From Arthrobacter sp. NicSoilB8 (GTDB lineage: Bacteria; Actinomycetota; Actinomycetes; Actinomycetales; Micrococcaceae), in contig NZ_AP024655.1 in assembly GCF_019977355.1 (NCBI RefSeq), forward strand, positions 806,001 to 870,000: a stretch of 64,000 nt of DNA, written 5' to 3'. Position numbers and translations under genes: made by a program. A model generated the notes under the pieces. That model was not told the origin of the DNA. It searched no databases and saw nothing but the letters and a program-made list of their open reading frames with translations. This document shows, one piece after another, positions 32,702 through 54,047 of the stretch. Position 1 is the first letter of the stretch. Every line of letters starts with the position of its first letter.

Positions 32702-32778
32702 GCCTCCTTAGCTCAGTTGGCCAGAGCACCGCTCTTGTAAAGCGGGGGTCGTCGGTTCGAATCCGACAGGGGGCCCCA
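32702..32778 (+). tRNA. tRNA-Thr (anticodon TGT), CCA encoded
   Basis: The acceptor stem GCCTCCT pairs with AGGGGGC (one G-U). The D-arm is AGCTCAGTTGGCCAGAGC, the anticodon stem CCGCT/AGCGG encloses CTTGTAA with anticodon TGT, and the T-arm is GTCGGTTCGAATCCGAC. The bases after the discriminator are CCA. The region that follows holds gene remnants and orphan genes. Confidence 0.95.
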
Positions 32779-35525: not shown

Positions 35526-35634
35526 GCGGGCCGGATCGAGCCGCAGGGGAGCGCGCGCCGAAAGCGGGGGCGCAAGGGCAGCGGATTCTCATCACGCACT
35601 ACGCGATGCTCGCCGCGGCTGACTGCCTCAGCCG

Positions 35635-37179
35635 TTAACGCCGTGGAGTGCTGACGTCGGCCGTGGGCAGATGCCCCAGCTTGCCCTGGACGCCCATGGC
35701 GTCATGGATCTGCAGGGCAAACCACAGTTGTGCAATCGTGGAGGTTTCGGACATATCAAGGCCCGTCAGCTCACTGATCTTCCGGATGCGATAGATGATG
35801 GTCTGTCGATGCGCGAACAGGGCGGTCGCCGTCTTCTGCCAGGACCGTTGCGAGTCAAGGAACGTCTTCAGCGTGACAAGGAGGTCACCGTTTTCTCCCT
35901 GTTCGTACTGGAATATGGGTCCGAGAAGCCGCTGGACCAATGCGTGGCCCTCCTCGAAGCTGGTGAGCCCCAGCCACGAGGGTCCCTCGGCATAACGGAC
36001 CAAGCCCTCGCCGGTGCTTGACGCCGTCCCCAGCGCCCACATTGATTCCTGAAGTGCTCTCTGCGCCCCGGCCGCCGCGGAAGGCCGGCTGATTCCGATC
36101 CTCACGTCCGAGGGGACGGCATGCCGCAGCAGATCGTCGGAACAGTCTGAGGCGACAGCCAAATGCAGTGTGTTGAAAGTGCGCTGGCACGCCGTCGGAT
36201 AGCCGTGCCGCCAAAGATCCACGTGGATCTCCGCCAGGCGCTCGCCGTTGTCGCTGGACATGGAGACGATTCGGAATTCCCGCGACGAAATCCCAAACTC
36301 AGGCAGCCGGCTTTCAATGTCGGCTATGCCCAGGCGCCCGTCAAAAGCCTGCAAAAGGAACTCCGCGCCTAGGCGGCGCTGGTTCTCAAGGGACAGCATC
36401 GTCCGCGACAGCTCCAGCCCAAGGACCGTGGCCGCATGGAGCAGCACCACCGCATCCGGGACGGGCTCGGAATTGGGCAACACCACCAGAAGCGCATTGG
36501 CGTGAGTCGGGATGTCCATCAACAGAACGTGGCTGCCCGCCAAACGGTGCCACTGGAACTTCTTGCTGGCGACCGGTGATTTGCTGGTCAGCGGTTCAAG
36601 ATCCTGCTTTAGGCCCGGAGGCAATGACTGGCCTCCGGGATGCCAGGCATGCAGGCACCGTCGATCAACCACGAAGAGGCTCGCGTCGAGTTCGGCTTCG
36701 ATGCCCAGGATCAGGCTTAGCCAGTTGTCCTCAGATGGCCCGGCAAGCCGCAGCAGGTCATAGATGCGGGCCGTCTGACGCAGTCTGCGGGACTCCTCAA
36801 GCAGCGAAGACTCGGCGACAGAACGTGCGATGGCGATGAATGGAAGCGGGTAAGGGATGCTGATGACCGGCAAGGGCAGGTGGTCGCAGACTTCGAAAAA
36901 CTCGGGAAGTAGCTCAGGGGCATGCATCTGCTCGCCGATCGCAAGGGCGCTGGCACCTGCATTGACCAGTGCCTCGGCCAGCTCCACCTGCCCCGCGGGA
37001 TCCGCCGGGATGGAGAGCCCGTTGGTCATCATGAGTTCCCCGCCGGTGACCCATTCCCACAGGCGCGGGAGGTCGGACGTATGGGCCCAGGTGACCCTGT
37101 TGCCCAGGCCGGCGGAACCCGCCAGAAGACTCAGGCCCAGCTGGGGTTCGGCCAGCAATTCCGACACGGTGATCGCCAT
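35635..37179 (-). CDS. PucR-family transcriptional regulator
   Basis: A 514-residue regulator. The N-terminal PucR ligand domain (about 1-130) includes LGNRVTWAHTSDLPRLWEWV and GGELMMTNGL, and the C-terminal PucR helix-turn-helix reads LKTFLDSQRSWQKTATALFA, then HRQTIIYRIRKISELTGLD. PucR proteins usually activate purine, amino-acid or polyamine catabolic genes when the substrate is present. It is divergent from the ureohydrolase gene, and a 20-bp perfect palindrome lies between their starts (37223-37242). It is therefore the probable regulator of the 37.4-45.7 kb cluster and possibly of itself. Confidence 0.9.
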   Translation of the reverse strand: MAITVSELLAEPQLGLSLLAGSAGLGNRVTWAHTSDLPRLWEWVTGGELMMTNGLSIPADPAGQVELAEALVNAGASALAIGEQMHAPELLPEFFEVCDHLPLPVISIPYPLPFIAIARSVAESSLLEESRRLRQTARIYDLLRLAGPSEDNWLSLILGIEAELDASLFVVDRRCLHAWHPGGQSLPPGLKQDLEPLTSKSPVASKKFQWHRLAGSHVLLMDIPTHANALLVVLPNSEPVPDAVVLLHAATVLGLELSRTMLSLENQRRLGAEFLLQAFDGRLGIADIESRLPEFGISSREFRIVSMSSDNGERLAEIHVDLWRHGYPTACQRTFNTLHLAVASDCSDDLLRHAVPSDVRIGISRPSAAAGAQRALQESMWALGTASSTGEGLVRYAEGPSWLGLTSFEEGHALVQRLLGPIFQYEQGENGDLLVTLKTFLDSQRSWQKTATALFAHRQTIIYRIRKISELTGLDMSETSTIAQLWFALQIHDAMGVQGKLGHLPTADVSTPRR

Positions 37180-37222
37180 GCGTGGTTCCTATTCATGAGT
37201 GCTGAGGCCGCCACCCCAAGCC

Positions 37223-37242
37223 GCTTATACATATGTATAAGC
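37223..37242. promoter_or_regulatory. 20-bp perfect palindrome, likely PucR-family operator
   Basis: GCTTATACATATGTATAAGC reads the same on both strands. It lies 44 bases from the pucR-like start and about 160 bases from the ureohydrolase start. The TACATATGTA core recurs before the NCS1 permease gene (38438-38447). Confidence 0.7.
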
Positions 37243-37400
37243 CCCTCGGTTATTTGTAGTCAATCGGCGCATAGGCCGCGTGACGCCGATCACTAATAGT
37301 TAAGGCATAGACCTCAACCGGCGCAGGAGCCCAGTACCGCCAAGTACGGAAAAGAAAACCGCCAAGCCGGCTGAACCCAAGTAACTGGAGGATCCCTGAC

Positions 37401-38405
37401 ATGACCACCCACAAGCCAATCGGTCCCGTCGATGCAACAAAAGTCCCCCGCTACGCAGGCCTGGGCACCTTCGCCAGGCTTCCGCAGATTGACCGTGTCC
37501 CGGACTACGACATTGCGATAGTCGGTGTCCCGTTCGACGGCGGCACCTCCTACCGCCCGGGCGCCCGCTTCGGTCCGGCGGCTGTCCGTGAAGCGTCGCG
37601 GCTCCTGCGCCCCGGCTACCACCCGGAACTCGACGTCGAGCCCGTGTACGAGGCCCAGGTTGTAGACGCCGGCGACATCGCCTGCACCCCCTACGACATC
37701 GCCCGCGCAGTCCGCGAGATCGAGGAGCAGGCCCTCCCGCTCCTCGGCGACGCCGGCTCCGGCAAGAGGCTGATCTCCATCGGCGGTGACCACACCATCG
37801 CGCTCCCGATGCTGCGGGCATTGAACAAGGTCCACGGCCCGGTGGCCCTGCTCCACTTTGACGCGCACCTGGACACCTGGGACGCCTATTTCGACCAGCC
37901 GGTCACGCACGGAACCATCTTTCGCCGGGCATTCGAAGAAGGCCTTCTCGTCGAGGATAAGTCGATGCACGTGGGCATCCGCGGCCCGGTTTACGACCGT
38001 AACGACTTCCTCCGCGACCACGAGTTCGGCTTCCAGATCATCCGCTGCTCGGACCTGGACGTCATCGGTGTTCCGGCCGCGATCCAGCGCGTCAAGGACC
38101 GGCTGGGCGACACCCCGGTCTATGTCTCCATCGACATCGATGTCCTGGACCCGTCCTACGCGCCGGGCACCGGCACTCCGGAAATGGGCGGGCTCCACTC
38201 TCGCGAGCTCCTGGCGCTGCTCCGCGGACTAAACGGCATCAACATCGTAGGTGCCGACGTCGTCGAGGTCGCTCCGGCCTACGACCACGCGGACATCACC
38301 ACCGTCGCCGCGGCGACCCTTGTCTTCGACCTCCTCGCCCTGATGGTGAACCGCAGCAAGGCCTCCGCCAACGTCGCCCAGGAGCTGCAAGCGGCCACCG
38401 TTTGA
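37401..38405 (+). CDS. speB: Ureohydrolase (agmatinase / guanidinobutyrase family)
   Basis: A Mn-dependent enzyme that releases urea from a guanidino compound. It is 334 residues, preceded by GGAGG. Metal ligands are intact: His131 (GGDHT), Asp154, His156 and Asp158 (FDAHLDTWD), Asp245 and Asp247 (SIDIDVLDP). PRYAGLGTFARLP near the N-terminus and the overall length match the agmatinase/guanidinobutyrase/guanidinopropionase group; the exact substrate cannot be read. The neighbouring NCS1 permease and aminobutyraldehyde-type dehydrogenase suggest guanidinobutyrate or a relative. The first codons (MTTHKPIGP) are nearly the same as in the permease at 47745. Confidence 0.87.
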   Translation: MTTHKPIGPVDATKVPRYAGLGTFARLPQIDRVPDYDIAIVGVPFDGGTSYRPGARFGPAAVREASRLLRPGYHPELDVEPVYEAQVVDAGDIACTPYDIARAVREIEEQALPLLGDAGSGKRLISIGGDHTIALPMLRALNKVHGPVALLHFDAHLDTWDAYFDQPVTHGTIFRRAFEEGLLVEDKSMHVGIRGPVYDRNDFLRDHEFGFQIIRCSDLDVIGVPAAIQRVKDRLGDTPVYVSIDIDVLDPSYAPGTGTPEMGGLHSRELLALLRGLNGINIVGADVVEVAPAYDHADITTVAAATLVFDLLALMVNRSKASANVAQELQAATV

Positions 38406-38434
38406 GCCACAACTGCTGGGCATTCGCGCCTGAT

Positions 38435-38450
38435 TTGTACATATGTATGA
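38435..38450. promoter_or_regulatory. Second TACATATGTA operator, before the NCS1 permease
   Basis: TTGTACATATGTATGA has the same 10-bp palindromic core as the site at 37223-37242, with flanking half-matches. It lies about 140 bases before the permease start and suggests that the permease has its own PucR-controlled promoter. Confidence 0.6.
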
Positions 38451-38565
38451 ACAGGTCTACGGCTACTATTCAATCGCCGGATTTCCTCTGTGACGAAAGT
38501 CACGAATGATTGATACATCAGATCCCGTGCTCGACGAAGCGCCGGGACAGAACAAAGAGAATCCC

Positions 38566-38589
38566 ATGAACTCCTGGAACGCATCATGA
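38566..38589 (+). CDS. Possible leader peptide MNSWNAS coupled to the NCS1 permease
   Basis: ATG 38566 begins a 7-codon frame whose TGA overlaps the permease ATG (ATGA at 38586-38589). AAAGAGA lies 5 bases before it, while the permease itself has only a weak TGGAA. It could couple translation of the permease. Unproven. Confidence 0.3.
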   Translation: MNSWNAS

Positions 38590-40055
38590 ACGCTCACCGC
38601 CCACCCACCGCAGCCGAGGTACCCCGGCTCGAGGACAAGACCATTCAACCCATCCCCGCCCACGAACGCCATGGAAAAGCCCGGGACCTTTTCACCATCT
38701 GGTTTGGTTCCAACATCATGATCATGACCATCGTGACCGGGGGACTCGCGACCACTGTGTTCGGGCTCAACTTTGTGCCCGCCATCGTCGGAATCATCAT
38801 TGGGAACGTCGTCGGTGGCATCTTCATGGCGCTGCATTCGGCCCAAGGTCCACAACTGGGTGTGGCGCAGATGATTCAGACCCGCGGCCAATTCGGTTCG
38901 TACGGTGCGCTACTGATCGTTGTCATCGTGGTGATCATGTACGTCGGGTTCTTTGCGGCGAACCTCGTCTTTGGCGGTCAAGCACTGGCCGCAGTCAGCC
39001 CAGGCATCAGTGTTGACGCAGGCATCATTGTCATTGGCGTCTTGAGCGTCGTTGCCACCATCTTCGGCTACCGGCTCATCCACGCCTATGCACGCTTCTT
39101 GAGCATCGTGGCGGGTCTGGCGCTGGTGCTGGCCTTCGTCTGGATCCTGGCCGTCCACGGATTGCCGGCCAGCTTCCTGAACCAGGGAAACTTCAACTGG
39201 GTGGGCTTCATGGCCACCATCTCCGTCTCCGCCCTCTGGCAGCTCGCCTACGCTCCCTACGTCTCGGACTACTCCCGCTATATGCCTCAGGGCACCGGCT
39301 CGGCCCCGGCGTTCTGGGCATCGTACTCGGGCTGCGTCTTGGGAACACTCTTCCCGATGGTGTTGGGTGCCTTGGTGGGAACGCTTGCCCTGACACTGAT
39401 CAACGATGGCAGCAGCGTCGAAATAGTCGGGAGCCTGGGAGCCATGCTAGGGCCATGGACCATGGTGATCATCGGAATCTTCTGCCTCGGCGTTGCGGCG
39501 TCGAACGCCATGAACCTCTACTGCGGGGTCCTGTGCACGCTCACCATCGGGCAGACGTTCAGGCCGACCTGGTTGCCCCACGCCAAGACCCGGACCATTG
39601 CGGCGATCCTCATCTTCACCCTCGCCCTCGTGATCGCACTGTTTGCCCGCGACAATTTCATCTTCTTCTACACGAACTTCCTCTCCTTCCTGATGTACGT
39701 CCTGGTTCCCTGGACGGCCATCAACCTCGTCGACTACTACCTCCTGCGTCACGGCGACTACAGGGTTGAAGACTTCTTCAAGCGCGACGGCGGGGTGTAC
39801 GGACGGTTCAACTGGGTTGCGATCGGAGCCTATGTTGCCGGCGCACTGATCCAGGTTCCGTTCTCGGCAACAGCGATGTTCACAGGCCCTGCTGCCGCAG
39901 CGATGAACGGCGTGGACGTCTCCTGGATTGTTGGCCTGGTGGTCGTTGCACCCCTCTACTACTTTGCGGCGCGAGTGTTCCGGAAGGAGCCGGAAGCAGC
40001 CCCCTTTCAGTCGCCTGCATTCGCAACTGAGCTGATTGAAGCCCCTCAGGCCTAA
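38586..40055 (+). CDS. NCS1-family permease (purine/cytosine/allantoin type), first copy
   Basis: A 489-residue membrane transporter with 12 predicted segments. NCS1 features are the cytoplasmic opening HGKARDLFTIWFGSNIMIMT and ALHSAQGPQLGVAQMIQTRGQFG, with the usual AYAPYVSDYSRYMP in the middle. NCS1 carriers import nucleobases, hydantoins, allantoin or similar nitrogen compounds with Na+ or H+. It lies between the ureohydrolase and the aldehyde dehydrogenase and has its own operator-like site, so it probably brings in the substrate of the pathway. Specificity is unknown. Confidence 0.88.
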   Translation: MNAHRPPTAAEVPRLEDKTIQPIPAHERHGKARDLFTIWFGSNIMIMTIVTGGLATTVFGLNFVPAIVGIIIGNVVGGIFMALHSAQGPQLGVAQMIQTRGQFGSYGALLIVVIVVIMYVGFFAANLVFGGQALAAVSPGISVDAGIIVIGVLSVVATIFGYRLIHAYARFLSIVAGLALVLAFVWILAVHGLPASFLNQGNFNWVGFMATISVSALWQLAYAPYVSDYSRYMPQGTGSAPAFWASYSGCVLGTLFPMVLGALVGTLALTLINDGSSVEIVGSLGAMLGPWTMVIIGIFCLGVAASNAMNLYCGVLCTLTIGQTFRPTWLPHAKTRTIAAILIFTLALVIALFARDNFIFFYTNFLSFLMYVLVPWTAINLVDYYLLRHGDYRVEDFFKRDGGVYGRFNWVAIGAYVAGALIQVPFSATAMFTGPAAAAMNGVDVSWIVGLVVVAPLYYFAARVFRKEPEAAPFQSPAFATELIEAPQA

Positions 40056-40173
40056 CGCCCACCCTCGCGCAAGTCGGCCCGGGGGCGGCCATACCGCCCA
40101 CCCCCGGGCATGTCCCCCCACCCCACATGACTGCCGACGTCGAAATCGGCGCAGAAAACAAAGGCTAAAAATC

Positions 40174-41676
40174 ATGACAATCACTGACCTCGAGCGGTTC
40201 ACAGTCCGACGCTCGTCCGCGGAGCAAAGCTGCGCCAGCGTTTTGCCTCCAACGGGGCATTTCATCGGTGGATCATTCGTTCCCGGCTCCTCGACCCGGC
40301 TCATAGACGTTGTGGATCCCACCACGGAGCAGGTCATCGCGTCCGTGCAGGCCGGCACGGCCTCGGATGTGGACGTCGCGGTTGAGGCGGCCGTGGCGGC
40401 CCAGAAGTCCTGGGGCGCCACGACCCCGAAGGAACGGTCCGAGGTGCTCTCGCTGATCGCCAACATCATTGAAGCCAACCGTGAAGCATTCGAAATCATC
40501 GAGTCCGCCAACACCGGTAAACCGCGAATGGTCGCGGAAGACGATGTCTCCAGCACCATCGATACCTTCCGGTTCATGGCCGGAGCTTCCCGCACACTGA
40601 CGTCCATGGCAGGCGGCGACTACGCCACCGGACATACCTCGGTCATCCTCAGGGAACCCGTCGGCGTCGTAGGCGTCATCACGCCTTGGAACTACCCGCT
40701 ACTGATGGCTGCTTGGAAGATCGCGCCCATCCTGGCCGCCGGAAACAGCATCGTCCTCAAGCCTTCGGAACAGACTCCGCTCTCGACGCTGAAGCTGGCA
40801 GAACTTACAGCCGGACGCATCCCCGATGGAATTCTCAACGTCGTGACGGGACAAGGCCGAACCGTTGGGCAGCGGCTCTCCGAGCACCCTGATGTCGCCC
40901 TCATTGCGTTGACGGGAAGCGTCGTCAGCGGACAGGCAGTGGCAGAGACCGCGGCCAAATCCGTCAAGCGCGTCCACCTCGAACTCGGCGGCAAGGCCCC
41001 TGTTGTTGTCTTCCCCGACGCGGACCTCCGCGCGGCCGCCGCCGGTGTGCGAAACGCCGGCTTCTGGAATGCCGGCCAGGACTGTGGCGCTGCGTGCCGC
41101 GTGCTGGTCCACGAATCGGTGGCTGAGGAGTTCGCCGAGCATCTGGTGCGGGAAGTCGGCACGCTCGTCGTCGGCGCCCCGGGTGCAGGGGACGAGGTGG
41201 AAATCGGTCCCATGATTTCGCGGCCGCACTTCGAACGCGTAAAGGAATCGCTTGCCGAGGCAAAGGCCGCGGGTCTTCAGGTGGCCATCGGTGGCTCGGC
41301 CTTGGAAGGTCCCGGCTACTTCATTGAACCCACAGTGATCAGCAACGTACCGGCCGGGGCCCACATTGCCACTCACGAAATCTTTGGTCCCGTCGTCACC
41401 GTCGAGTCCTTCAGCTCCACCGAAGAGGCCATTACCCGGGCCAACGAGAGCCCCTACGGCCTTTCTGCCTCGGTATGGACGCGGGATTCGAGCCTCTCGC
41501 TCAGCGTTCCGAAGCAACTCGATTTCGGCACCGTCTGGGTCAATTCACACCTGGTCTTGGCTTGTGAGGTTCCGTGGGGCGGATTCAAAGGATCCGGCTA
41601 TGGCCGCGACCTCTCGCTGTATGCCTTGGACGATTACTCCCGGACCAAGCACGTCATGATCAACCACAGCGCGTGA
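40174..41676 (+). CDS. Aldehyde dehydrogenase, gamma-aminobutyraldehyde (PatD) type
   Basis: A 500-residue NAD(P)-dependent aldehyde dehydrogenase. ATG 40174 follows AAAGG; the frame is open further upstream but the sequence there is Pro/Arg-rich and not protein-like. Active-site residues are Glu270 (LELGGKAPVV) and Cys304 in GQDCGAACR. That motif is close to the GQDCTAACR of E. coli aminobutyraldehyde dehydrogenase and unlike most other subfamilies. PWNYPLLMAAWKIAPILAAGN and the NAD fold GSVVSGQAVAETA are also present. In context it may oxidise 4-aminobutanal or 4-guanidinobutanal to the acid. It lies in the operon after the permease. Confidence 0.88.
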   Translation: MTITDLERFTVRRSSAEQSCASVLPPTGHFIGGSFVPGSSTRLIDVVDPTTEQVIASVQAGTASDVDVAVEAAVAAQKSWGATTPKERSEVLSLIANIIEANREAFEIIESANTGKPRMVAEDDVSSTIDTFRFMAGASRTLTSMAGGDYATGHTSVILREPVGVVGVITPWNYPLLMAAWKIAPILAAGNSIVLKPSEQTPLSTLKLAELTAGRIPDGILNVVTGQGRTVGQRLSEHPDVALIALTGSVVSGQAVAETAAKSVKRVHLELGGKAPVVVFPDADLRAAAAGVRNAGFWNAGQDCGAACRVLVHESVAEEFAEHLVREVGTLVVGAPGAGDEVEIGPMISRPHFERVKESLAEAKAAGLQVAIGGSALEGPGYFIEPTVISNVPAGAHIATHEIFGPVVTVESFSSTEEAITRANESPYGLSASVWTRDSSLSLSVPKQLDFGTVWVNSHLVLACEVPWGGFKGSGYGRDLSLYALDDYSRTKHVMINHSA

Positions 41677-41704
41677 GCGTTGAGACCAGCATCGGAGCTC
41701 AGCA

Positions 41705-43000
41705 ATGACCACCACGAATCATCCCCACGCCGCGTCGTCGGCACGCGCCGCAACCCCGTCCGCTCCCTTCGGGACAGACGTAACGTGGACCAACTGGGGC
41801 GGAAACCAGAGCGCCACGCCGGCCTTCACGGTCCGGCCGCGGACTGAACAGGAAGCGCTCGACGCCGTCCGGTTCGCCATCCGCGAAGGCCTGCCAGTCC
41901 GCGCAGTCGGCTCAGGACATTCCTCCTCTCCGCTTGTTCAGACGGGCGGCGTCCTGATGGACATGTCCGCACTCTCGGCAATCACCGGGACCGACACTGT
42001 GCGGCGTCGCGCGAGGGCCCTGGCGGGCACCACCATCAGCGCTTTTGGCGATCCGCTGTGGGAGCAGGGGCTGGCACTGGGCAACCAGGGCGACATCGAT
42101 AAGCAGCAGATCGCCGGGGCGCTCTCGACCAGCACCCACGGCTCCGGAAAGGATCTGGGCAGCTTTTCATCAAACCTGCGTTGGGTCAGGCTGATCAACG
42201 GTTACGGCGAAATCGTCGAAATTGGTGAAGGGCAGCTCCGCGAACTCAAGGCCGCCCAGGTCGCCTTGGGGACGCTCGGAATCTTCCTGGAGGTCGAACT
42301 GGCGGTAGCGGACCGCTATTACCTGCAGGAGGAGATTACGTATCCCACGTGGGCGGAGACCGCGGCAACCTGGCAGGCCGACATCGACGCGAACAGGCAC
42401 TACTCGTTCCTCTGGTGCCCGGACGACGATTCATGCGAGCTCCTGGACCTACCCGGTTCGCCGAGCCAGAAGATGGCGAACCGCAGCTACACCAAGCGGT
42501 ACAACATTGCCCCGATCCAGGACGAGCATGAAATTTCGCGCACGGAGGGTGCCCGGCTGGACCGGTCTTACCGCATCTACCCGGGCGGATTCACCACACA
42601 GTTCCATGAACTCGAGTACTTCGTTCCCAGCCAGCACGGCCTGGAGGCCGTCGAGGCTGTCCAGGAGCTGATCCGCACCAAGCATCCCGACCAGAAGTAC
42701 CCCGTTGAGGTCCGCTGGGTGAAAGCCGACGAAGGTTACATGTCCCAGTTCCAGGGACGGGACACCACCGTCATTACCCTGACCACCCAACCTGGAACTG
42801 ACTACTGGCCTTTCTTCCGGGATGCAGACGCGCTGCTTCAGGAATTCGAGCCGCGTGCGCACTGGGGAAAGATCCATTTCATGACGAGGAGCCGCTTGGA
42901 GCGTCTCTACCCGGAGATTGACACCTTCATCCAGGTGCGCCGGGAGTTCGACCCCCGCGGAATATTCCTTAACGACCACACTCGTGCGCTCGTTGGCTAA
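41705..43000 (+). CDS. FAD-linked sugar-1,4-lactone oxidase-like protein
   Basis: A 431-residue flavoprotein of the L-gulono/D-arabinono-1,4-lactone oxidase group. GGAG lies 7 bases before the ATG. The FAD-binding part has VRAVGSGHSSSPLVQTGGV, whose His is the usual covalent FAD site in this family, and ALSTSTHGSG. The substrate domain has the near-terminal RAHWGKIHF and EFDPRGIFLNDHTR typical of the family. It should oxidise a sugar lactone or polyol with O2 or a dehydrogenase partner. Its place in a guanidino/nitrogen cluster is unusual and suggests a sugar- or polyol-like substrate. It starts 28 bases after the ALDH stop. Confidence 0.85.
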   Translation: MTTTNHPHAASSARAATPSAPFGTDVTWTNWGGNQSATPAFTVRPRTEQEALDAVRFAIREGLPVRAVGSGHSSSPLVQTGGVLMDMSALSAITGTDTVRRRARALAGTTISAFGDPLWEQGLALGNQGDIDKQQIAGALSTSTHGSGKDLGSFSSNLRWVRLINGYGEIVEIGEGQLRELKAAQVALGTLGIFLEVELAVADRYYLQEEITYPTWAETAATWQADIDANRHYSFLWCPDDDSCELLDLPGSPSQKMANRSYTKRYNIAPIQDEHEISRTEGARLDRSYRIYPGGFTTQFHELEYFVPSQHGLEAVEAVQELIRTKHPDQKYPVEVRWVKADEGYMSQFQGRDTTVITLTTQPGTDYWPFFRDADALLQEFEPRAHWGKIHFMTRSRLERLYPEIDTFIQVRREFDPRGIFLNDHTRALVG

Positions 43001-43100
43001 ATCAGCCAGCTAGGCTAAATCGGCAATTCCGGCGTATGCCCCCGAATCGTGACCGGGGGCATACTGCCCACCCTGGCACAATCAATGGGGAAGAGAAGAC

Positions 43101-43859
43101 ATGAGCCATTTTCAGGACAAGACCTACCTTGTCACCGGAGCCAGCTCCGGCATCGGTCTCGCGACCACCAGGGCCCTCCTGGCGCAAGGGGCAAAGGTTG
43201 CAGCAGTAGGGCTCCCGGACCGTCTGCTTGATGACGCAAAACGCCAACTGTCGGGCGCCGTGATCTTCATCGAAGCTGACGTCTCTGAGTCCCAGCAGGT
43301 CGATAGCGCCTTCGCCCGGGCGGAAACAGAACTCGGCCCCCTGAGCGGGGCCTTCAACGCCGCGGGAATTTCCAGCGTTGCGCCCATCGCCGAAACGTCC
43401 GACAAACTGTGGCAGAGACTGATCCAGGTGAACTTGACCGGCACTTTCCACTTCGCCAGGGCAGCGGCGCGAACGCTCTCATCCAACGGCGGGGGCTCGC
43501 TCGTCTGCACTGCCAGCGAACTATCACTCGTCGGCCAGGCCGGCTACAGCGCATACACCGCGACCAAGGGCGGCGTCCTGTCGATGGTGCGGTCCTTGGC
43601 CGCCGAACTTGCACCTGCCGGCGTCCGGGTCAACGCGCTGTCGCCGGGCACGACAGATACTCCGATGCTTGCGGCCGAGTTCGCGAACGAAGAAGAACGC
43701 GCCAGGGACGAAGCGTCCGTGCCTCTTGGCCGATTCGCCCTGCCGGAGGAGATTGCGGCCGCGGCGCTGTGGCTGTTGGGCCCCGATTCCTCATATGTCA
43801 CGGGAACAAACCTTGTTGTCGACGGTGGTCGAACCACGACGTTCCCCCTCGGACACTGA
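43101..43859 (+). CDS. Short-chain dehydrogenase/reductase
   Basis: A classical SDR of 252 residues. The cofactor loop is TGASSGIGLA, the structural motif is FNAAGIS, and catalytic Ser and YSAYTATKGG (Tyr, Lys) are in place. The C-terminal NALSPGTTDTPM and VTGTNLVVDGGRTTTFPLGH are standard. The absence of an Arg/Lys-rich cofactor loop and the presence of an acidic residue after the second strand (EADVSES) fit NAD. The substrate, probably an alcohol or sugar-like intermediate, is unknown. It lies in the same direction as its neighbours with a 100-base gap before it. Confidence 0.88.
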   Translation: MSHFQDKTYLVTGASSGIGLATTRALLAQGAKVAAVGLPDRLLDDAKRQLSGAVIFIEADVSESQQVDSAFARAETELGPLSGAFNAAGISSVAPIAETSDKLWQRLIQVNLTGTFHFARAAARTLSSNGGGSLVCTASELSLVGQAGYSAYTATKGGVLSMVRSLAAELAPAGVRVNALSPGTTDTPMLAAEFANEEERARDEASVPLGRFALPEEIAAAALWLLGPDSSYVTGTNLVVDGGRTTTFPLGH

Positions 43860-43891
43860 CATCTATCACTCGCGCTGAAAGGCAAAATCAC

Positions 43892-44815
43892 ATGAGCTCT
43901 GTCCTGGTCACAGGTGGTGCCGGATTCACTGGCCGCCACATCATCAACGAACTTGCCGACGCCGGCCATCAGACTGTCAGCTACAACCGGGATTTCCTCG
44001 AGGCTCCACGCCCCGATGTGGTTTCCATTCAGGGCGAACTGTTTGATATCCCTCGCCTCCTCGAAGTATTCAAGGAGCACGACATTGACACCATCGTCCA
44101 TACCGCCGCGATATCCCACCCGACCTATTCTTTGAGCTTTCCCCTGGCGACGTTTGCAGCCAACGTCGAGGGAACAGTGGCGGTTTTCGAGGCAGCACGA
44201 CTCCACGGCGTCAAACGGATCATCAACTTCTCTTCCGAGTGCGTGTACGGAAAGACCTCAGCACCGGTCGTTCTCGAATCGGAGCCGGTAAATCCCACGA
44301 CGCCCTACGCCGTGACGAAGGTTACCGGGGAATGGCTCGGCCAGGTCTACGGCGACAGGTATGGAATCGACGTCATCTCCCTGCGCATCGGCCAAGTTTA
44401 CGGACCCGGAAACCGCATGGATGAAGTCCTGCGGGATATCATGCGCGGCGTAGTCCGTGACGGTTCATTCTCACAGGACCACGGGGCCGATCACCGCTAT
44501 AACCTGGTCTACGTCCGCGACGTCGCTCTTGCCATACTGGCGGCAGTCCAGGCACCGCAAACAGCCTCGGCCAGGCCCCTGGCCTACAACATCTCCGGCA
44601 GCGAGTACTGGACACTCAGTGACGTAGTCAAAGAAGTTCGAATGGCATTCCCGGACGCCACCGTGGAGATCGGTCCCGGGACGGATCCAACCTTGGACCT
44701 GCAGGGCCACTTCAGCATCGCTTCCGCTGGCGCGGATCTGGGCTACGAATCGGCCTGGCCCCTGCAGCGGGCCCTCGGCGACTACGCCGACTGGCTCTCC
44801 ACTCATGACTTCTGA
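43892..44815 (+). CDS. NAD(P)-dependent epimerase/dehydratase
   Basis: An extended SDR of 307 residues; ATG 43892 has GAAAGG 9 bases before it. The Rossmann loop is VTGGAGFTGRHI, and the catalytic pair is in YAVTK; INFSSECVYG and VISLRIGQVYGPGNRM match the NAD-sugar epimerase pattern. It probably works on a sugar or sugar-like acid rather than a nucleotide sugar, given the catabolic context, but that is inference. It starts 33 bases after the SDR stop. Confidence 0.87.
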   Translation: MSSVLVTGGAGFTGRHIINELADAGHQTVSYNRDFLEAPRPDVVSIQGELFDIPRLLEVFKEHDIDTIVHTAAISHPTYSLSFPLATFAANVEGTVAVFEAARLHGVKRIINFSSECVYGKTSAPVVLESEPVNPTTPYAVTKVTGEWLGQVYGDRYGIDVISLRIGQVYGPGNRMDEVLRDIMRGVVRDGSFSQDHGADHRYNLVYVRDVALAILAAVQAPQTASARPLAYNISGSEYWTLSDVVKEVRMAFPDATVEIGPGTDPTLDLQGHFSIASAGADLGYESAWPLQRALGDYADWLSTHDF

Positions 44816-44854
44816 GCCTGTTCTTCTGACCCATTTCTTCTGATAGGGGCAATC

Positions 44855-45733
44855 ATGACATTTAATAAGAGCGGCTGGAGGCAGGGGGCGGCGTGCGTTG
44901 CCGCGCTGACGTTCGACGTCGACGCCGAGTCCCCCATCCTGGCCGCCGGCCGCCGCCATGCCGACAATGCAATGGCGATGACTCACCAGGCGTTCGGACC
45001 CAAGGTGGGTGTTCCGCGGATTCTCCAAATGTTGAAAGACGTGCAGCAGCCGGCGACATTCTTTATTCCAGGCGTAACCGCGGAATGGTATCCCCACATG
45101 GTTGAGCAGGTCCTGGAAGCCGGTCATGAGATCGCGCACCACTCACACACTCACCGCACGGCGGTGAGCATGAGTTTCGACGACGAGCGCGCTGACTTCG
45201 ATCTGGCGCTTTCCGCGCTCGGGCGCTTCGGCATTTCTCCAAAAGGGCATCGCGCCGCAATGTGGGAGCCCTCGTGGCAGACTCCGTCGCTGGTGGCTGA
45301 GTATGGGCTGAAATACGATTCCAGCCTGATGGATGCGGACATCCCGTATCTCATTGAAACGCCCGCGGGGACGGTTGCGGAGCTCCCCCCGCATTGGAGC
45401 CTGGACGACTGGGAGCAGTATGCCTTCCTTCCGGAACCCAAGATCGGTGGAATCATCCAGTCGCCACTGGTCGTGGCGGACATGTGGATTCACGAGATCG
45501 ACGCAATGCGACGCCATGGCGCGCTTTTCATGCTCACGTGCCACCCTTTCCTCACTGGGCGGGCAGGACGGCTGGAGGCGCTGCGGACGGTTATCGAAAC
45601 TGCGCTGGAACGAGGCGACGTCCGCTTCTCGACGTGCGAAGCGCTCGCGGAAGCGGCACTCGATGACCCTGCATTGATCGCCGAGCCCCTCAATCCAGTG
45701 ACAGCGTCCGCGGAGCTGTATCCGCACTACTGA
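44855..45733 (+). CDS. Polysaccharide-deacetylase-family hydrolase (PuuE/PgdA-like)
   Basis: A 292-residue NodB-fold metallohydrolase without a signal peptide. Metal/catalytic motifs are ALTFDVDAES (Asp pair), HHSHTHR (two His) and a late FMLTCHPFLTGR. Cytoplasmic members include allantoinase PuuE and related amidohydrolases, which fits the NCS1/PucR context better than cell-wall deacetylation. It is the last gene of the run that starts at 43101. Its stop TGA lies inside the first of three 31-bp repeats. Confidence 0.82.
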   Translation: MTFNKSGWRQGAACVAALTFDVDAESPILAAGRRHADNAMAMTHQAFGPKVGVPRILQMLKDVQQPATFFIPGVTAEWYPHMVEQVLEAGHEIAHHSHTHRTAVSMSFDDERADFDLALSALGRFGISPKGHRAAMWEPSWQTPSLVAEYGLKYDSSLMDADIPYLIETPAGTVAELPPHWSLDDWEQYAFLPEPKIGGIIQSPLVVADMWIHEIDAMRRHGALFMLTCHPFLTGRAGRLEALRTVIETALERGDVRFSTCEALAEAALDDPALIAEPLNPVTASAELYPHY

Positions 45734-45821
45734 GCGCCGGACTGCTGAACCCGGCGCCAACTGAGCGCCGGACTGCTGAATCCGGCGCCAACTGAGCGCC
45801 GGGCTGCTGAATCCGGCGACA
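45729..45821. repeat. 31-bp tandem repeat, three copies
   Basis: Units start at 45729, 45760 and 45791, each beginning ACTGAGCGCCGG. Within each unit GCGCCGGA and TCCGGCGC (or close variants) can form a hairpin around CTGCTGAA. Copies differ at one to four positions. The first unit contains the stop codon of the deacetylase gene. The array may serve as terminator or mRNA stabiliser. Confidence 0.9.
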
Positions 45822-45943
45822 TGGCGAAAATTTATGACCCCAAAACACAACAGCCCTAGGGCGAAGCCCTTGGCCGCCCATCAGCCACGCCCGCCGCGCG
45901 TTGTGAAGCTTCCCCCTAAGACCGACCCAGCGAAAGAAGGCTC

Positions 45944-47452
45944 ATGGCAATGAACTCCCCGTCCCAGCTGTTGTCGGACGCCTCTGGTCCAACACAGACG
46001 CCTAATCCTGAATCCCTCCAACTGAAACGGGAGATGGGGTTCTGGTCCTCCTTCTCGTTGGCGTTCGCATTCATGTCGCCAATCATCGGCTTGTACGGAG
46101 TATTTGGCTTGGCCCTGATGGCCGCAGGCCCGGCCTTCTGGTGGGGGTTGTTGGTGGTCCTCCTAGGCCAGGCCCTGGTAGCAGCCGTGCTTGCCGAACT
46201 CGCTTCACGATGGCCCGTTGCCGGCGGGGTCTGCCTCTGGTCCAGGTCCCTTCTCGGACACACCTACAGCTGGTACGCAGGGTGGGCCTACATCTGGACG
46301 CTCATCATCACAGTTGCCGCCGTGGCCTTCGGCGGTGGCACATTTCTTGCCTCATTGCTCGGCATTGAGCAGCCTGACACCACAACGAAAATCGTGCTGG
46401 GCGCCGTCATCTTGTTGATAAGTACTATCGCCAACTCTGCCGGAAGGAAATGGCTGAGTCTGCTAGTGACTGTGAGCATCGTGTGTGAGGTCATCGCCAG
46501 CCTGGGAGTCGGGTTGGTACTGATCATCTTCCATCGCCGAAATTCCCTGAGCACGATTCTGGACGCTTTCGGATCCGCACCCGACACAACCGCATATGTC
46601 TTTGGGCCTTTCCTTGCCGCGGTGGCAATCATCGGTTGGTCGTTTGTGGGATTCGAAAGTGCGGGCGCAATTGCCGAGGAAGTCCGATCTCCCGAACGCA
46701 AAGTTCCGAGGGCAGTACTTACGTCTCTGATCACGGTGGCATCTGTCATTACGTTTTCTTGCCTGGCCCTGCTCCTCGCAATCCCGGATATTGGCGCCGC
46801 CATGTCGGGGGCCGACCCGGACCCGATTACGACAACCCTCACTGCCAATCTCGGCGAGGGCGTCACCAAACCCCTCCTGGTGGCCATCGTCCTGGGATTC
46901 ATCGCCGGGACGGTGGCACTGCAGGCGGCCGTATCTCGATCGGTTTTCGCGTTCGCCAGGCTGGATGCCCTACCTGCGGCCAAGATCCTGAGGCGTCTCA
47001 GCAAGACCGACCGACTGCCCATCAACGCCCTCTTAGTCTCCGCGGTCGCTTCAATGATTGTTCTGGCCCTGTCGGCATCACAGGTGTACGGCGCCCTCGT
47101 TGCCTTCGCGACGGCGGGCTTCTACGTGGCTTTCATCTTTCCAGTGCTGGCCGCGCTGGTAGTACGGCTGAAGGGAGAGTGGAATGCCGGACCCTTCAGC
47201 CTGGGAGTTCTTGGCCCAGTAGTGAACGTGGCCGCATTGCTGTGGTTGGGTTTTGAGATCGTCAATATCGCATGGCCGCGCCAACCGGAAGCGCCCTGGT
47301 ACCAGAACTACGCAGTGACTGTGGTCTTCGTGCTCCTTGGCCTGGCGGGATTTGCGGTGGAGAGACGCCTGCGTCGACGCAATAGCGACGCCCACTTGGC
47401 GACAGAGACAGAGACAGATCCGGAGCCGGAACTGGTGAAAGTCGCGCCGTGA
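45944..47452 (+). CDS. APC-superfamily amino acid/amine permease
   Basis: A 502-residue transporter with about 12 membrane segments. The start (ATG 45944, with a second ATG two codons later) follows GAAAGAAGG. The family blocks are LKREMGFWSSFSLAFAFMSPIIGLYGVFG, VLAELASRWPVAGG and GFESAGAIAEEVRSPERKVPRAVL. It resembles the amino-acid/GABA/choline (ACT) branch and may import a polyamine or amino-acid product linked to the upstream pathway. The C-terminus is acidic and hydrophilic. A terminator-like hairpin follows. Confidence 0.87.
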   Translation: MAMNSPSQLLSDASGPTQTPNPESLQLKREMGFWSSFSLAFAFMSPIIGLYGVFGLALMAAGPAFWWGLLVVLLGQALVAAVLAELASRWPVAGGVCLWSRSLLGHTYSWYAGWAYIWTLIITVAAVAFGGGTFLASLLGIEQPDTTTKIVLGAVILLISTIANSAGRKWLSLLVTVSIVCEVIASLGVGLVLIIFHRRNSLSTILDAFGSAPDTTAYVFGPFLAAVAIIGWSFVGFESAGAIAEEVRSPERKVPRAVLTSLITVASVITFSCLALLLAIPDIGAAMSGADPDPITTTLTANLGEGVTKPLLVAIVLGFIAGTVALQAAVSRSVFAFARLDALPAAKILRRLSKTDRLPINALLVSAVASMIVLALSASQVYGALVAFATAGFYVAFIFPVLAALVVRLKGEWNAGPFSLGVLGPVVNVAALLWLGFEIVNIAWPRQPEAPWYQNYAVTVVFVLLGLAGFAVERRLRRRNSDAHLATETETDPEPELVKVAP

Positions 47453-47493
47453 ACGCCGCCAAACAAAAAGCGGGCCAATAGTCCCAATCATAA

Positions 47494-47744: not shown

Positions 47745-49244
47745 ATGACCACATACAAGCCAATCGGCCCCGGCAGTGCCGAGCGTACCAACACCGAAGT
47801 CCATCTCGGAGACTACGAAGCGTCACTTCAGCCGATTCCGGAGGCGGCTCGCACTCGAAAAGTCTCGGGACAATTCTGGATTTGGGCCGGCGCCAACCTC
47901 GCGCCAATCAACTGGGTCCTCGGGGCTTTGGGCATTCACCTGGGCCTCGGGCTCGCTGACACTATTTTGGTTCTGGTACTGGGGAACCTGATCGGCATGC
48001 TGTTGTTCGGTTGTTTTGTGTTACTCGGTCAGAAGACGGGGGCGACGGCCATGGTGCAGTCCCGGGCCGCCTTCGGCCGCCGCGGAAACTACATTCCTGC
48101 GGGAATGCAAGCCCTCCTCGTCATCGGCTGGTGCGCAGTGAATACGTGGGTCATTTTGGATCTGGTGATGGCCCTGTTGGGCATGCTTGGTTGGGTTGAT
48201 CCGGACGCACCGAACTATGCATGGAAGATTTCCGTCGCGGCAGCGATTATGGGTGCCCAAGTGGCAATCGCCTGGTTTGGGTACAAAGCCATTGCTGCTT
48301 TTGAACGCTGGACTGTGCCGCCCACGCTTGTCATCCTCGTTATCATGTCCGCGGTCGCGTGGTTGGGACTGAAGATCGACTGGGCCTATGCGGGGCCCTC
48401 CGGCCAGATTCTCGAAGGATCCGAGCGGATTGCTGCCATGAGCGCCGTCATGACTGCCATCGGCATCGGCTGGGGAATTACTTGGTTCACCTACGCCGCA
48501 GACTATTCACGATTTGTCAGTATTTCCGTACCTGGGCGGAAGGTCTACCTGGCCTCCGTGCTTGGGCAATTCATCCCGGTTGTCTGGCTTGGAATTCTGG
48601 GCGCCAGCCTCGCAACCAATAGCGGAGAGATCGATCCAGGCAAGCTCATCGTGCAGAATTTTGGGGCGTTGGCGATCCCGGTCCTCTTCATGGTTCTGCA
48701 TGGCCCGATCGCCACAAACATCCTGAATATTTACAGCTTTTCAGTGACGACGCAGGCCCTGGATATACAAATCAGCCGACGGAAGCTTAACGTCTTCGTC
48801 GGGGCACTTTCTTTTGTGGCCGTGGTCTTCTTTATTTTCCAGGATGACTTTGCATCCGTGCTTGATTCGTGGCTCGTGGGCCTGGTTGCGTGGGTTGCCG
48901 CGTGGAGCGGCGTCATGCTGGTTCACTTCTTCTGGCTGGAAAAGAAATGGCCGCGTGGCACAGACCGTCTATTTGCGGCTCCCGGGTCAAACAGGCTGCC
49001 CTCTGTGAACTGGGCCGGAATTACTTCCCTTGTGCTCGGGGTTTTCGCCACATGGCTATTCATGTACGGACTGGTGCCTCAGATGCAGGGGCCCATAGCC
49101 ACGGCACTTGGCGGGTGGGACCTCTCCTGGCTGGCCGGGGGACTGACTAGTGCTGCCAGCTACGCGCTGCTGGGGCGCCGAGCTCACCAAAGGTCCGACA
49201 TTGACTCGCATCGCATCGAAGAACTGAAGGTGCAGCAAAACTGA
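47745..49244 (+). CDS. NCS1-family permease, second copy
   Basis: A 499-residue NCS1 transporter, clearly different from the first copy. It has RKVSGQFWIWAGANLAPINWVLGALG, then QKTGATAMVQSRAAFGRRGNY and TWFTYAADYSRFVS at the usual places, and about 12 membrane segments. The N-terminal MTTYKPIGPGSAERT closely resembles the start of the ureohydrolase (MTTHKPIGP), down to the DNA around the start codon. Transported compound unknown, probably a nucleobase or hydantoin-like molecule. It is a single gene at the edge of the PucR cluster, converging on the L,D-transpeptidase gene. Confidence 0.87.
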   Translation: MTTYKPIGPGSAERTNTEVHLGDYEASLQPIPEAARTRKVSGQFWIWAGANLAPINWVLGALGIHLGLGLADTILVLVLGNLIGMLLFGCFVLLGQKTGATAMVQSRAAFGRRGNYIPAGMQALLVIGWCAVNTWVILDLVMALLGMLGWVDPDAPNYAWKISVAAAIMGAQVAIAWFGYKAIAAFERWTVPPTLVILVIMSAVAWLGLKIDWAYAGPSGQILEGSERIAAMSAVMTAIGIGWGITWFTYAADYSRFVSISVPGRKVYLASVLGQFIPVVWLGILGASLATNSGEIDPGKLIVQNFGALAIPVLFMVLHGPIATNILNIYSFSVTTQALDIQISRRKLNVFVGALSFVAVVFFIFQDDFASVLDSWLVGLVAWVAAWSGVMLVHFFWLEKKWPRGTDRLFAAPGSNRLPSVNWAGITSLVLGVFATWLFMYGLVPQMQGPIATALGGWDLSWLAGGLTSAASYALLGRRAHQRSDIDSHRIEELKVQQN

Positions 49245-51885: not shown

Positions 51886-51894
51886 GGCTGACCC

Positions 51895-52935
51895 TTATTC
51901 CGGGAGATTCTGGGAGGTGGACGGTTGCTGTTGGGTGATGCAGTGGATGCCGCCGCCGCGGGCGAAGAGCTCGCGGGCGTTGATGCCGACCACTTTGCGG
52001 CCCGGGTAGGCGTCGCCGAGGATGCGCAACGCCTTCTCATCCATCGGGTCGCCGAACGTGCAGGCGATGACGCCGCCGTTGACCACCAGATGGTTGATGT
52101 AGCTGTAGTCGACGAAGCCTTCCTCGTCCGTGAGGGTTTCCGGGGCGGGAACCTCGATGATGTTCCATTCACGGCCGGCCGCGTCCCGGGTGGTGGCGAG
52201 GTGGCCGATGATCTCTCGGCTGACCTCGAAATCGGGATGGGCCGGGTTCTGCTGCGAGTGGACCAGCACGGTGCCCGGGGACGGGATGGCCGCGACGATA
52301 TCGACGTGGCCGCGCGTGCCGAACCGCTCCGAATCCCGGGTCAGCCCCCGCGGCAGCCAGACGACGTGGCTGGCGCCGAGGGTCCGGGCCAGCTCCGCCT
52401 CGACGTCGGCCTTGCTGAGCCCGGGGTTGCGGCCCGGATCCAGCTGCACCGTCTCGGTGACGAGGACCGTGCCTTCGCCGTCCACATGGATGCCGCCGCC
52501 CTCGTTCACCAAGGGCGACACCACGTGGCTGGCTCCCGAGCGGGCCGCGACCTCCGCCGCCACGAGCGAATCCTTGTCCCAGACGGCCCAGTCCTGGCCG
52601 CCCCAGCCGTTGAACACCCAGTCCACGGCGCCGAGCCGGCCGGTGGCGTCCAGGACAAACGTGGGGCCGATGTCCCGCATCCAGGCATCGTTCAGCGCGG
52701 CGGTGACCACCTCGACATCGGGGTGGAGGTAGCGCGCGGCAGTTTCCGCATCCTCCGGGGCCACCAGCATGGTGACCGGTTCGAACTCCACCACGGCGTT
52801 CGCGACGCCGGCCCACACGGAGCGGGCGGCGTGGGCGTCTTCCGCTGTCTCGCCCAGGGTGTAGCCGCCGGTGGGGAACGCCATCCAGACGCGGTCCTGG
52901 GGTGCCGTTTCGGACGGCATCCGCCAGGCGCTCAC
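51895..52935 (-). CDS. aguA: Agmatine deiminase AguA
   Basis: It converts agmatine to N-carbamoylputrescine and ammonia. It is 346 residues, the normal size, of the pentein fold. Family blocks are RVWMAFPTGGYTLG, NDAWMRDIGPTFV, WVFNGWGGQDW, VNEGGGIHVDGEGTVLVTE and TRGHVDIVA, with the catalytic Cys332 in GGGIHCITQQQ. The GTG start overlaps the aguB stop by 4 bases (GTGA), so the two are coupled. An internal ATG 15 bases further on is possible. Confidence 0.93.
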   Translation of the reverse strand: MSAWRMPSETAPQDRVWMAFPTGGYTLGETAEDAHAARSVWAGVANAVVEFEPVTMLVAPEDAETAARYLHPDVEVVTAALNDAWMRDIGPTFVLDATGRLGAVDWVFNGWGGQDWAVWDKDSLVAAEVAARSGASHVVSPLVNEGGGIHVDGEGTVLVTETVQLDPGRNPGLSKADVEAELARTLGASHVVWLPRGLTRDSERFGTRGHVDIVAAIPSPGTVLVHSQQNPAHPDFEVSREIIGHLATTRDAAGREWNIIEVPAPETLTDEEGFVDYSYINHLVVNGGVIACTFGDPMDEKALRILGDAYPGRKVVGINARELFARGGGIHCITQQQPSTSQNLPE

Positions 52936-53999: not shown

Positions 54000-54026
54000 G
54001 GCTACTCCAGTGAGACGGGCGTCACA

Positions 54027-54047
54027 TAAATGAACAGTGTTCATTTA
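54027..54047. promoter_or_regulatory. Perfect palindromic operator before aguB
   Basis: TAAATGAACA and TGTTCATTTA, ten perfect pairs around a single central base, lie 28 bases before the aguB start. The form is typical of TetR-family operators. No regulator gene is adjacent, so the protein that binds is unknown. Confidence 0.75.

What the first reader, a model, noticed from the sequence alone, without database searches (positions are those of the whole stretch)
35635..45733. Uncharacterised PucR-controlled cluster joining a ureohydrolase to sugar-type oxidoreductases
A guanidino hydrolase and an aminobutyraldehyde-type dehydrogenase fit guanidinobutyrate-like compounds, but the same run has a lactone oxidase, an SDR, a sugar epimerase and a PuuE-like hydrolase. 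The set suggests stepwise breakdown of a substrate with both a guanidino or ureido group and a sugar- or polyol-like part. No described pathway with this exact gene set is known to me.
Basis: inference. Interest (0 to 1): 0.75.

Follow-up and report, generated by a model that had tools for sequence, protein, structure and literature searches.

The report
Two-part guanidino-compound catabolic gene cluster
A soil actinobacterium carries a jointly controlled gene cluster that probably breaks down a nitrogen-rich guanidino compound to urea and an amino acid, and an optional block of dehydrogenases plus a probable ring-opening enzyme has been added to it; variants of that block recur in distant bacteria, but its substrate is unknown.

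Summary
It is two modules. PucR|Ureo-NCS1-ALDH-oxidase is common: the Ureo orthologue is in 63 of 198 genus genomes; 14 of 20 contexts read have all three partners. SDR-EPI-PuuE-permease is an optional cassette starting just after the oxidase stop codon; EPI is in 4 of 395 family genomes. A 20-bp palindrome between PucR and Ureo, with a second site before the NCS1 gene, is a probable operator; with at most 2 mismatches only these two places match in 5.17 Mb. In the EPI loci read elsewhere a PuuE-like, creatininase or hydantoinase gene is close by, and in a Pseudomonas plasmid also a 3-guanidinopropionase orthologue with beta-alanine-type genes. Best model: the dehydrogenases oxidise an alcohol to a cyclic amide, the PuuE-like enzyme opens it, Ureo releases urea. 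A sugar part is only weakly hinted at. Substrate unknown.

The parts
35635..37179 (-). PucR-family transcriptional regulator, divergent from the operon
   Evidence: PF07905 and PF13556
37223..37242 (.). probable PucR operator 1, 20-bp perfect palindrome GCTTATACATATGTATAAGC between PucR and the ureohydrolase
   Evidence: only 2 places in the genome match its 16-bp core with <=2 mismatches; conserved in relatives
37401..38405 (+). ureohydrolase (guanidino-acid hydrolase; GpuA/GbuA/PAH group)
   Evidence: PF00491; PDB 3nip 264 bits, 3nio 249, 1gq6 237; Tyr at the GpuA Tyr157 position
38435..38450 (.). probable PucR operator 2 (TTGTACATATGTATGA) upstream of the NCS1 permease
38586..40055 (+). NCS1-type permease (NCS1a)
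   Evidence: PF02133; TIGR00800 below its cut-off
40174..41676 (+). aminoaldehyde-type aldehyde dehydrogenase (500 aa from the ATG)
   Evidence: PRK13473 612.7 bits against cut-off 615; start
41705..43000 (+). VAO-family FAD oxidase, alditol/lactone-oxidase type; last gene of the common core
   Evidence: TIGR01679 285.5 bits against 292.25; PDB 2vfr best
43101..43859 (+). classical SDR, first gene of the optional cassette
   Evidence: PF13561/PF00106; cassette boundary
43892..44815 (+). extended SDR (EPI), NAD(P)-dependent dehydrogenase/epimerase fold
   Evidence: PF01370; start; model pLDDT 91.7 ties GalE and L-threonine dehydrogenase folds
44855..45733 (+). PuuE-like CE4-fold hydrolase, probable cyclic amide/imide/ureide hydrolase
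45944..47452 (+). APC-family amino-acid permease (AAP), last gene of the cassette
   Evidence: PF13520; TIGR03428 below its cut-off; beside the cassette in seven relatives, not found in L037 or L038

Best explanation
A PucR-controlled catabolic cluster for guanidino compounds, built of two modules around one hub enzyme. Hub: the ureohydrolase cleaves a short guanidino acid to urea plus an omega-amino acid; urease can use the urea. Module A (core, common in the genus): NCS1 permease, VAO oxidase and aminoaldehyde-type dehydrogenase turn an alcohol into an aldehyde and then into the guanidino acid. Module B (optional cassette): amino-acid permease imports a substrate, the two SDR-type dehydrogenases oxidise an alcohol and then the ring-closed aldehyde (a cyclic hemiaminal formed with the guanidine nitrogen) to a cyclic acylguanidine or similar cyclic amide, and the PuuE-like hydrolase opens that ring to the same guanidino acid. 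Shown by computation: families, architecture, modularity, conserved probable operators, recurrent partnership of the dehydrogenases with cyclic-amide hydrolases. Inferred: order of steps, the cyclic intermediate, the acid being 3-guanidinopropionate or a near homologue.
For: Ureo: guanidino-acid hydrolases lead the PDB matches (3nip 264, 3nio 249, 1gq6 237; the next, agmatinases, 207-209), with Tyr where GpuA has specificity residue Y157 (residue from PMC10833137, passages). Co-regulation: probable operators before Ureo and before NCS1a, and about 300 bp before the permease gene in two relatives without NCS1a. Modularity. EPI-anchored loci: in a mycobacterial genus (11 of 148 genomes) SDR, PucR and a creatininase-family gene lie by EPI in 11 of 11, PuuE in 5, Ureo in 3; three plasmid records have PuuE-like (L118), D-hydantoinase (L119) or PuuE allantoinase (L125) close to EPI. 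Endpoint: in L118 the Ureo is a GpuA orthologue (631 bits to 3nip) followed by an AptA-type aminotransferase and methylmalonate-semialdehyde dehydrogenase; the Rubrobacter plasmid has the same dehydrogenase, alanine dehydrogenase and an aminotransferase with Ureo-permease-SDR-SDR-PuuE. Precedent: HxnW makes and HxnM (PuuE/HpPgdA-like imidase) opens a cyclic imide in A. nidulans (PMC9304392, passages). L038 keeps SDR-PuuE without EPI. Urease.
Against: The window has no beta-alanine genes in the unit, and its Ureo is only slightly nearer GpuA than GbuA; A. niger GBase also has Tyr at that position. Of 80 PuuE-anchored loci (best 80 of 526) only 16 have a Ureo; a protein cluster with an old-yellow-enzyme representative is in 47 and a PucR cluster in 47, so PuuE-like proteins have another common context. 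8 of 11 mycobacterial EPI loci lack Ureo in the operon, and 5 lack Ureo and PuuE in the stretch fetched, so the cassette can serve other products: beside one of these (L141) lie serine/glycine genes, and in Thermoactinospora L069, which has no Ureo hit, hydroxypyruvate isomerase, tartronate-semialdehyde reductase and glyoxylate carboligase follow the module. 4 of 5 plasmid contexts of GpuA-like genes read had no such module (the fifth has creatininase and two SDRs). The Thermomicrobium PuuE-like context showed no link. No biochemistry was done; no step order is shown.
Confidence: 0.45

Rival explanations
1. Ordinary guanidino-acid catabolism: the core alone (permease, oxidase, ALDH, ureohydrolase) degrades 4-guanidinobutyrate or a guanidino/amino alcohol, and SDR-EPI-PuuE-permease is an unrelated pathway that landed downstream and borrows the promoter.
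For: The core occurs without the full cassette in 11 of the 14 core-bearing contexts read, and the cassette boundary lies between genes, just after the oxidase stop codon. Six of 20 contexts have PucR and Ureo without either block; in these an ORF of 460-505 aa overlaps the Ureo start, and the two of the six that were scanned (L201, L211) are MFS transporters, enough for uptake and cleavage of a guanidino acid.
Against: In MYb227 (L039) and G246 (L149) the cassette genes sit with PucR and Ureo without NCS1a and oxidase (an ALDH 70% alike lies about 6.6 kb beyond Ureo in L149), and a second operator-like site precedes the permease gene. PuuE-EPI-SDR also joins Ureo in mycobacteria and in a Pseudomonas plasmid.
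Confidence: 0.27
2. Breakdown of a cyclic ureide or pyrimidine-like compound (hydantoin, dihydrouracil or imide type), with the ureohydrolase acting on an unusual ureido or formimino intermediate.
For: PuuE-like, dihydropyrimidinase and creatininase partners belong to families with cyclic-amide hydrolases; one MAG locus (L092) pairs Ureo-PuuE with a cytosine deaminase-type protein, and it and others have NCS1, a HydA relative and methylmalonate-semialdehyde dehydrogenase nearby.
Against: The ureohydrolase is nearest to enzymes of guanidino substrates and passes agmatinase cut-offs; the cassette transporter is an amino-acid permease.
Confidence: 0.15
3. One reading: a guanidinylated or ureido sugar or polyol degraded stepwise.
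For: EPI and the VAO oxidase belong to superfamilies that include sugar enzymes; the alditol-oxidase resemblance is real; a Peripla_BP_4 gene follows EPI in Shinella L125; hydroxypyruvate isomerase lies behind the module in L069.
Against: The window unit itself has no kinase, isomerase, glycosidase or sugar transporter among its scanned genes; EPI misses GalE's cut-off and its fold ties threonine dehydrogenase; in two plasmids the endpoint genes point to beta-alanine or 3-aminoisobutyrate.
Confidence: 0.08

Closest known systems
gpu (3-guanidinopropionate) utilisation in Pseudomonas aeruginosa (GpuA, PDB 3nip; gpuPAR gene order recalled)
   Same: Ureohydrolase of the same group; in plasmid pF061_1 a GpuA orthologue stands with PuuE-EPI-SDR, a LysR regulator and a sodium symporter.
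   Different: The window uses a PucR regulator, NCS1 and APC permeases, and adds oxidase, ALDH, SDRs and a PuuE-like hydrolase; its Ureo is about equally near GbuA.
Nicotinate hxn pathway of Aspergillus nidulans (HxnW dehydrogenase, HxnM cyclic imidase; PMC9304392)
   Same: A dehydrogenase described as NAD-dependent polyol-dehydrogenase type makes a cyclic imide that a hydrolase related to HpPgdA and PuuE opens (passages).
   Different: Pyridine-derived substrate; no ureohydrolase in the passages seen; HxnM itself was not compared with the window protein here.
PuuE allantoinase (PDB 3cl6, TIGR03212)
   Different: 48 bits against a cut-off of 424.6; 22% identity in the structural alignment.
Creatinine degradation (creatininase TIGR04448 and later steps)
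   Same: Mycobacterial versions of the cassette carry a creatininase-family protein, over the cut-off in the one scanned.
   Different: No creatininase among the scanned genes of the window unit; creatinase and sarcosine oxidase were not sought.

Membership tests
3-guanidinopropionase (GpuA) | closest characterised relative and ureohydrolase metal motifs | tested here: met
   3nip best of the PDB matches (264 bits), but 3nio 249 and 1gq6 237 are close; GGDH, DAHxD and DxDxxDP motifs (recalled as metal motifs) present in the sequence
3-guanidinopropionase (GpuA) | Tyr at position 157 | tested here: met
   Tyr aligned to GpuA Y157; not decisive, a 4-guanidinobutyrase also has Tyr there
3-guanidinopropionase (GpuA) | activity on 3-guanidinopropionate | not testable with these tools
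   needs an assay
agmatinase (SpeB) | TIGR01230 cut-off and closest relative | tested here: inconclusive
   240.8 bits against 174.3, yet guanidino-acid hydrolases score above the agmatinases in PDB
PuuE allantoinase | TIGR03212 cut-off | tested here: not met
   48.4 against 424.6 bits
CE4-type cyclic imide hydrolase (HxnM, P. putida CIH) | PuuE/HpPgdA-like fold with conserved Asp/His metal-type residues | tested here: met
   that these residues bind metal is inferred
CE4-type cyclic imide hydrolase (HxnM, P. putida CIH) | direct sequence similarity to HxnM or CIH and imidase activity | not tested
   neither sequence was in hand
UDP-glucose 4-epimerase (GalE) | TIGR01179 cut-off | tested here: not met
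   93.4 against 262.3 bits, scored on the over-long ORF that contains the whole protein
sugar 1,4-lactone oxidase | TIGR01678 cut-off | tested here: not met
   144.7 against 396.8 bits; the broader TIGR01679 is 285.5 against 292.25
aminobutyraldehyde dehydrogenase | TIGR03374 and PRK13473 cut-offs | tested here: not met
   511.5 against 909.3; 612.7 against 615
PucR regulator | PucR N-terminal and HTH_30 domains | tested here: met

The most novel reading that the evidence does not exclude
A general, undescribed 'ring detour' for guanidino- and ureido-aldehydes that close on themselves: SDR-type dehydrogenases oxidise the cyclic hemiaminal to a cyclic acylguanidine or ureide, a swappable ring-opening hydrolase (PuuE-like, creatininase or hydantoinase) makes the acid, and a ureohydrolase releases urea; spread across Actinomycetota and Pseudomonadota, partly on plasmids.
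Probability: 0.28. Interest if true: 0.7.

Novelty: new variant of a known kind. Interest (0 to 1): 0.47.

Why it matters
Genes of this kind are labelled 'agmatinase', 'polysaccharide deacetylase', 'UDP-glucose 4-epimerase' or 'creatininase' in the records seen. Their recurrent partnership suggests a catabolic route for guanidino nitrogen, and gives testable functions to a PuuE-like family with 5,089 members at E <= 1e-30 among 7,996 candidates scored; the named ones among the 120 listed bear generic deacetylase names.

Tried and rejected
Sugar-nucleotide role for EPI: rejected as a default. PuuE-like as a true allantoinase: cut-off not met. NCS1b (47745-49244) and the APC-agmatine deiminase-CN-hydrolase genes (50311-54044) as part of the unit: rejected; APC-AguA-CNH follows the cassette in L034, L035 and L037, but APC also stands in L200, where the cassette is absent, and relatives of NCS1b sit next to a different, widespread PuuE-like paralogue 38-43% identical in L007-L030. 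Known non-coding RNA in 33000-55000: none at the gathering score. The Arthrobacter palindrome itself was not found in the 14 mycobacterial or Thermoactinospora intergenic regions read; a different palindrome was. EPI searches giving nothing beyond the seed: phylum sample 1 of 396, family of the Thermoactinospora genome 1 of 250; 0 of 6, which had no positive control. In some searches only part of the first-look candidates was scored in many genomes, so counts are lower bounds. Literature searches for the gene set gave no match (listings; passages of PMC9304392, PMC9772407 and PMC10833137). Speculative substrates considered (capreomycidine-like amino acids, lombricine-derived guanidinoethanol, arginine glycation products, isocytosine) have no direct evidence and are not claimed. 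The gpuPAR gene order and the chemistry of guanidino-aldehyde cyclisation are recalled, not from a call.
Full report
OBSERVATION. The window lies in a 5.17-Mb genome (two contigs). Relatives whose PuuE-like protein is 91-95% identical are named Arthrobacter species, so it is called an Arthrobacter-type genome here by inference. At 35635-47452 a PucR regulator (minus strand) faces Ureo, NCS1a, ALDH, VAO oxidase, SDR, EPI, PuuE-like hydrolase and APC permease. EPI likely starts at 43892, not 43409; the ALDH likely at 40174.

TWO MODULES. The Ureo orthologue (E <= 1e-130, 90-100% identity) is in 63 of 198 genus genomes. Of the 30 short loci returned (the best matches, the window's own included), 28 have NCS1a by Ureo. 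In these six and in L210 an ORF of 460-505 aa overlaps the start of Ureo; the three scanned (L201, L210, L211) are MFS transporters, all below curated cut-offs. EPI is in 4 of 395 genomes of the family. DNA similarity to the window stops at 42998-43003, the end of the oxidase gene, in L199, L200 and L203; in cassette-bearing L196 and L198 the alignment breaks at 43000-43006 and resumes at 43077-43088; L034 is continuous from 35625 to 47460. In G246 and MYb227 (L149, L039) the cassette genes stand with PucR and Ureo, without NCS1a and oxidase. A. hankyongi (L038) has SDR-PuuE without EPI.

REGULATION. A perfect 20-bp palindrome lies between PucR and Ureo. In the whole genome its 16-bp core (one position degenerate) with at most 2 mismatches occurs at two places, here and upstream of NCS1a, and the reversed control pattern at none. 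Of the 20 further stretches (two of them repeats of these genomes) 16 have a site with at most 3 mismatches and four none (L206, L208, L210, L215; PucR 69-72% identical), but others with PucR 68-71% keep a site. The mycobacterial loci have a palindrome of their own, first seen in L093, L142, L144 and L145. Its pattern CATACNNNNGTATG, with at most 2 mismatches, is found beside PucR in those four and in 8 of the 10 other loci read (not in L107 or L069); outside these regions it occurs 0 times with 0-1 mismatches and 10 times with 2 in the 233,749 bases of the 14 loci. Both palindromes share the half-sites ATAC-N4-GTAT. Binding by PucR is inferred.

THE CASSETTE ELSEWHERE. EPI-anchored searches: 11 of 148 genomes of a mycobacterial genus, two of them already known, and 3 of 72,556 plasmid records. 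In the 11, PucR, SDR and a creatininase-family gene lie by EPI in 11 of 11, an APC permease in 7, PuuE in 5 and Ureo in 3 (L137 is cut short by its contig, and L143 has a second cluster PuuE-Ureo-SDR-SDR-permease-PucR next door). One such creatininase-family protein was scanned and passes TIGR04448 (249 against 235 bits). The plasmids: P. aeruginosa pF061_1 has an APC permease, Ureo, PuuE, EPI, SDR, LysR, sodium symporter, aminotransferase and methylmalonate-semialdehyde dehydrogenase; its Ureo scores 631 bits with 3-guanidinopropionase 3nip against 327 with guanidinobutyrase, and the aminotransferase passes the AptA model (704.7 against 500). Aminobacter SR38 has an ABC transporter set, then EPI-SDR-dihydropyrimidinase, the last over the D-hydantoinase cut-off. 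Shinella Teo12 has a PuuE allantoinase over its cut-off directly before EPI, a Peripla_BP_4 gene after it and an SDR hit about 4 kb further. Rubrobacter radiotolerans has a related set with two SDRs and no EPI hit: PucR, methylmalonate-semialdehyde dehydrogenase, alanine dehydrogenase, aminotransferase, Ureo, permease, SDR, SDR, PuuE. Among 80 PuuE-anchored loci from genome contigs (the best 80 of 526, lengths 4.5-20.9 kb), 16 have Ureo, 15 EPI and 8 both. A protein cluster whose one scanned member is of the old-yellow-enzyme family is in 47 of the 80 loci, and a PucR cluster in 47: a different, common context.

MECHANISM. The ureohydrolase is nearest to hydrolases of guanidino acids and has the GpuA Tyr. 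PuuE-like: CE4/PuuE fold (the model has mean pLDDT 79 with low stretches at 26-41 and 136-139) with invariant Asp and His residues. Exchange of PuuE-like, creatininase and hydantoinase families near the same EPI-SDR pair argues that the shared step is opening of a cyclic amide. Where a GpuA orthologue is present (L118), genes fitting beta-alanine or 3-aminoisobutyrate follow. Five mycobacterial loci (L139, L141, L142, L144, L145) had neither PuuE nor Ureo in the stretch fetched; beside L141 lie serine hydroxymethyltransferase, serine ammonia-lyase and lipoamide dehydrogenase genes. In Thermoactinospora L069, without a Ureo hit, hydroxypyruvate isomerase, tartronate-semialdehyde reductase and glyoxylate carboligase follow the module. 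So some versions may feed glycine, serine or glyoxylate metabolism instead. I infer alcohol -> aldehyde (closing to a hemiaminal) -> cyclic amide -> acid -> amino acid plus urea, by analogy with HxnW/HxnM. The oxidase and ALDH of the core would be an open-chain parallel. The genome has urease and another ureohydrolase followed by a TPP enzyme, resembling but below the cut-off of 5-guanidino-2-oxopentanoate decarboxylase, so this cluster is probably not its only guanidino-compound route.

LIMITS. No assay, no expression data. The substrate is open. Counts by the genome search score only part of the first-look candidates in many genomes. Of five plasmid contexts of GpuA-like genes read (of 325 records matched), four showed no such module and one did.

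Noticed in passing
window 45732-45820: Three head-to-tail copies of an about 30-bp hairpin-forming repeat (GAGCGCCGGACTGCTGAATCCGGCGCC, slightly varied) between PuuE and the permease; the stretch 45730-45945 folds with z -3.2.
   Followed up: partly
window 50311-54044: Agmatine deiminase (PF04371), CN-hydrolase (N-carbamoylputrescine amidase-like by position) and APC permease genes on the minus strand next to the cluster; probably a separate agmatine route.
   Followed up: partly
L041-L113 (many): A recurrent set of PuuE-like hydrolase, old-yellow-enzyme-type protein, DUF1989 protein, PucR and NCS1 permease in actinomycetes, reminiscent of the HxnT/HxnM pair.
   Followed up: partly
L149 96-4245; L039 2110-6229: A LamB/YcsF (PxpA), carboxyltransferase-domain and biotin-carboxylase-type gene set next to PucR in two relatives (scanned in L149, the carboxylase in L039); possibly another cyclic-amide hydrolase.
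   Followed up: no
L160 6971-13369: In a Shinella plasmid a PuuE-like gene stands with a hydantoinase/carbamoylase-family amidase and a 5-guanidino-2-oxopentanoate decarboxylase.
   Followed up: no
L069 10001-18631: In Thermoactinospora two PuuE-like genes flank EPI, and glyoxylate-to-glycerate genes follow.
   Followed up: no
window 32702-32778: tRNA-Thr gene about 3 kb from the cluster, not examined as an integration site.
   Followed up: no
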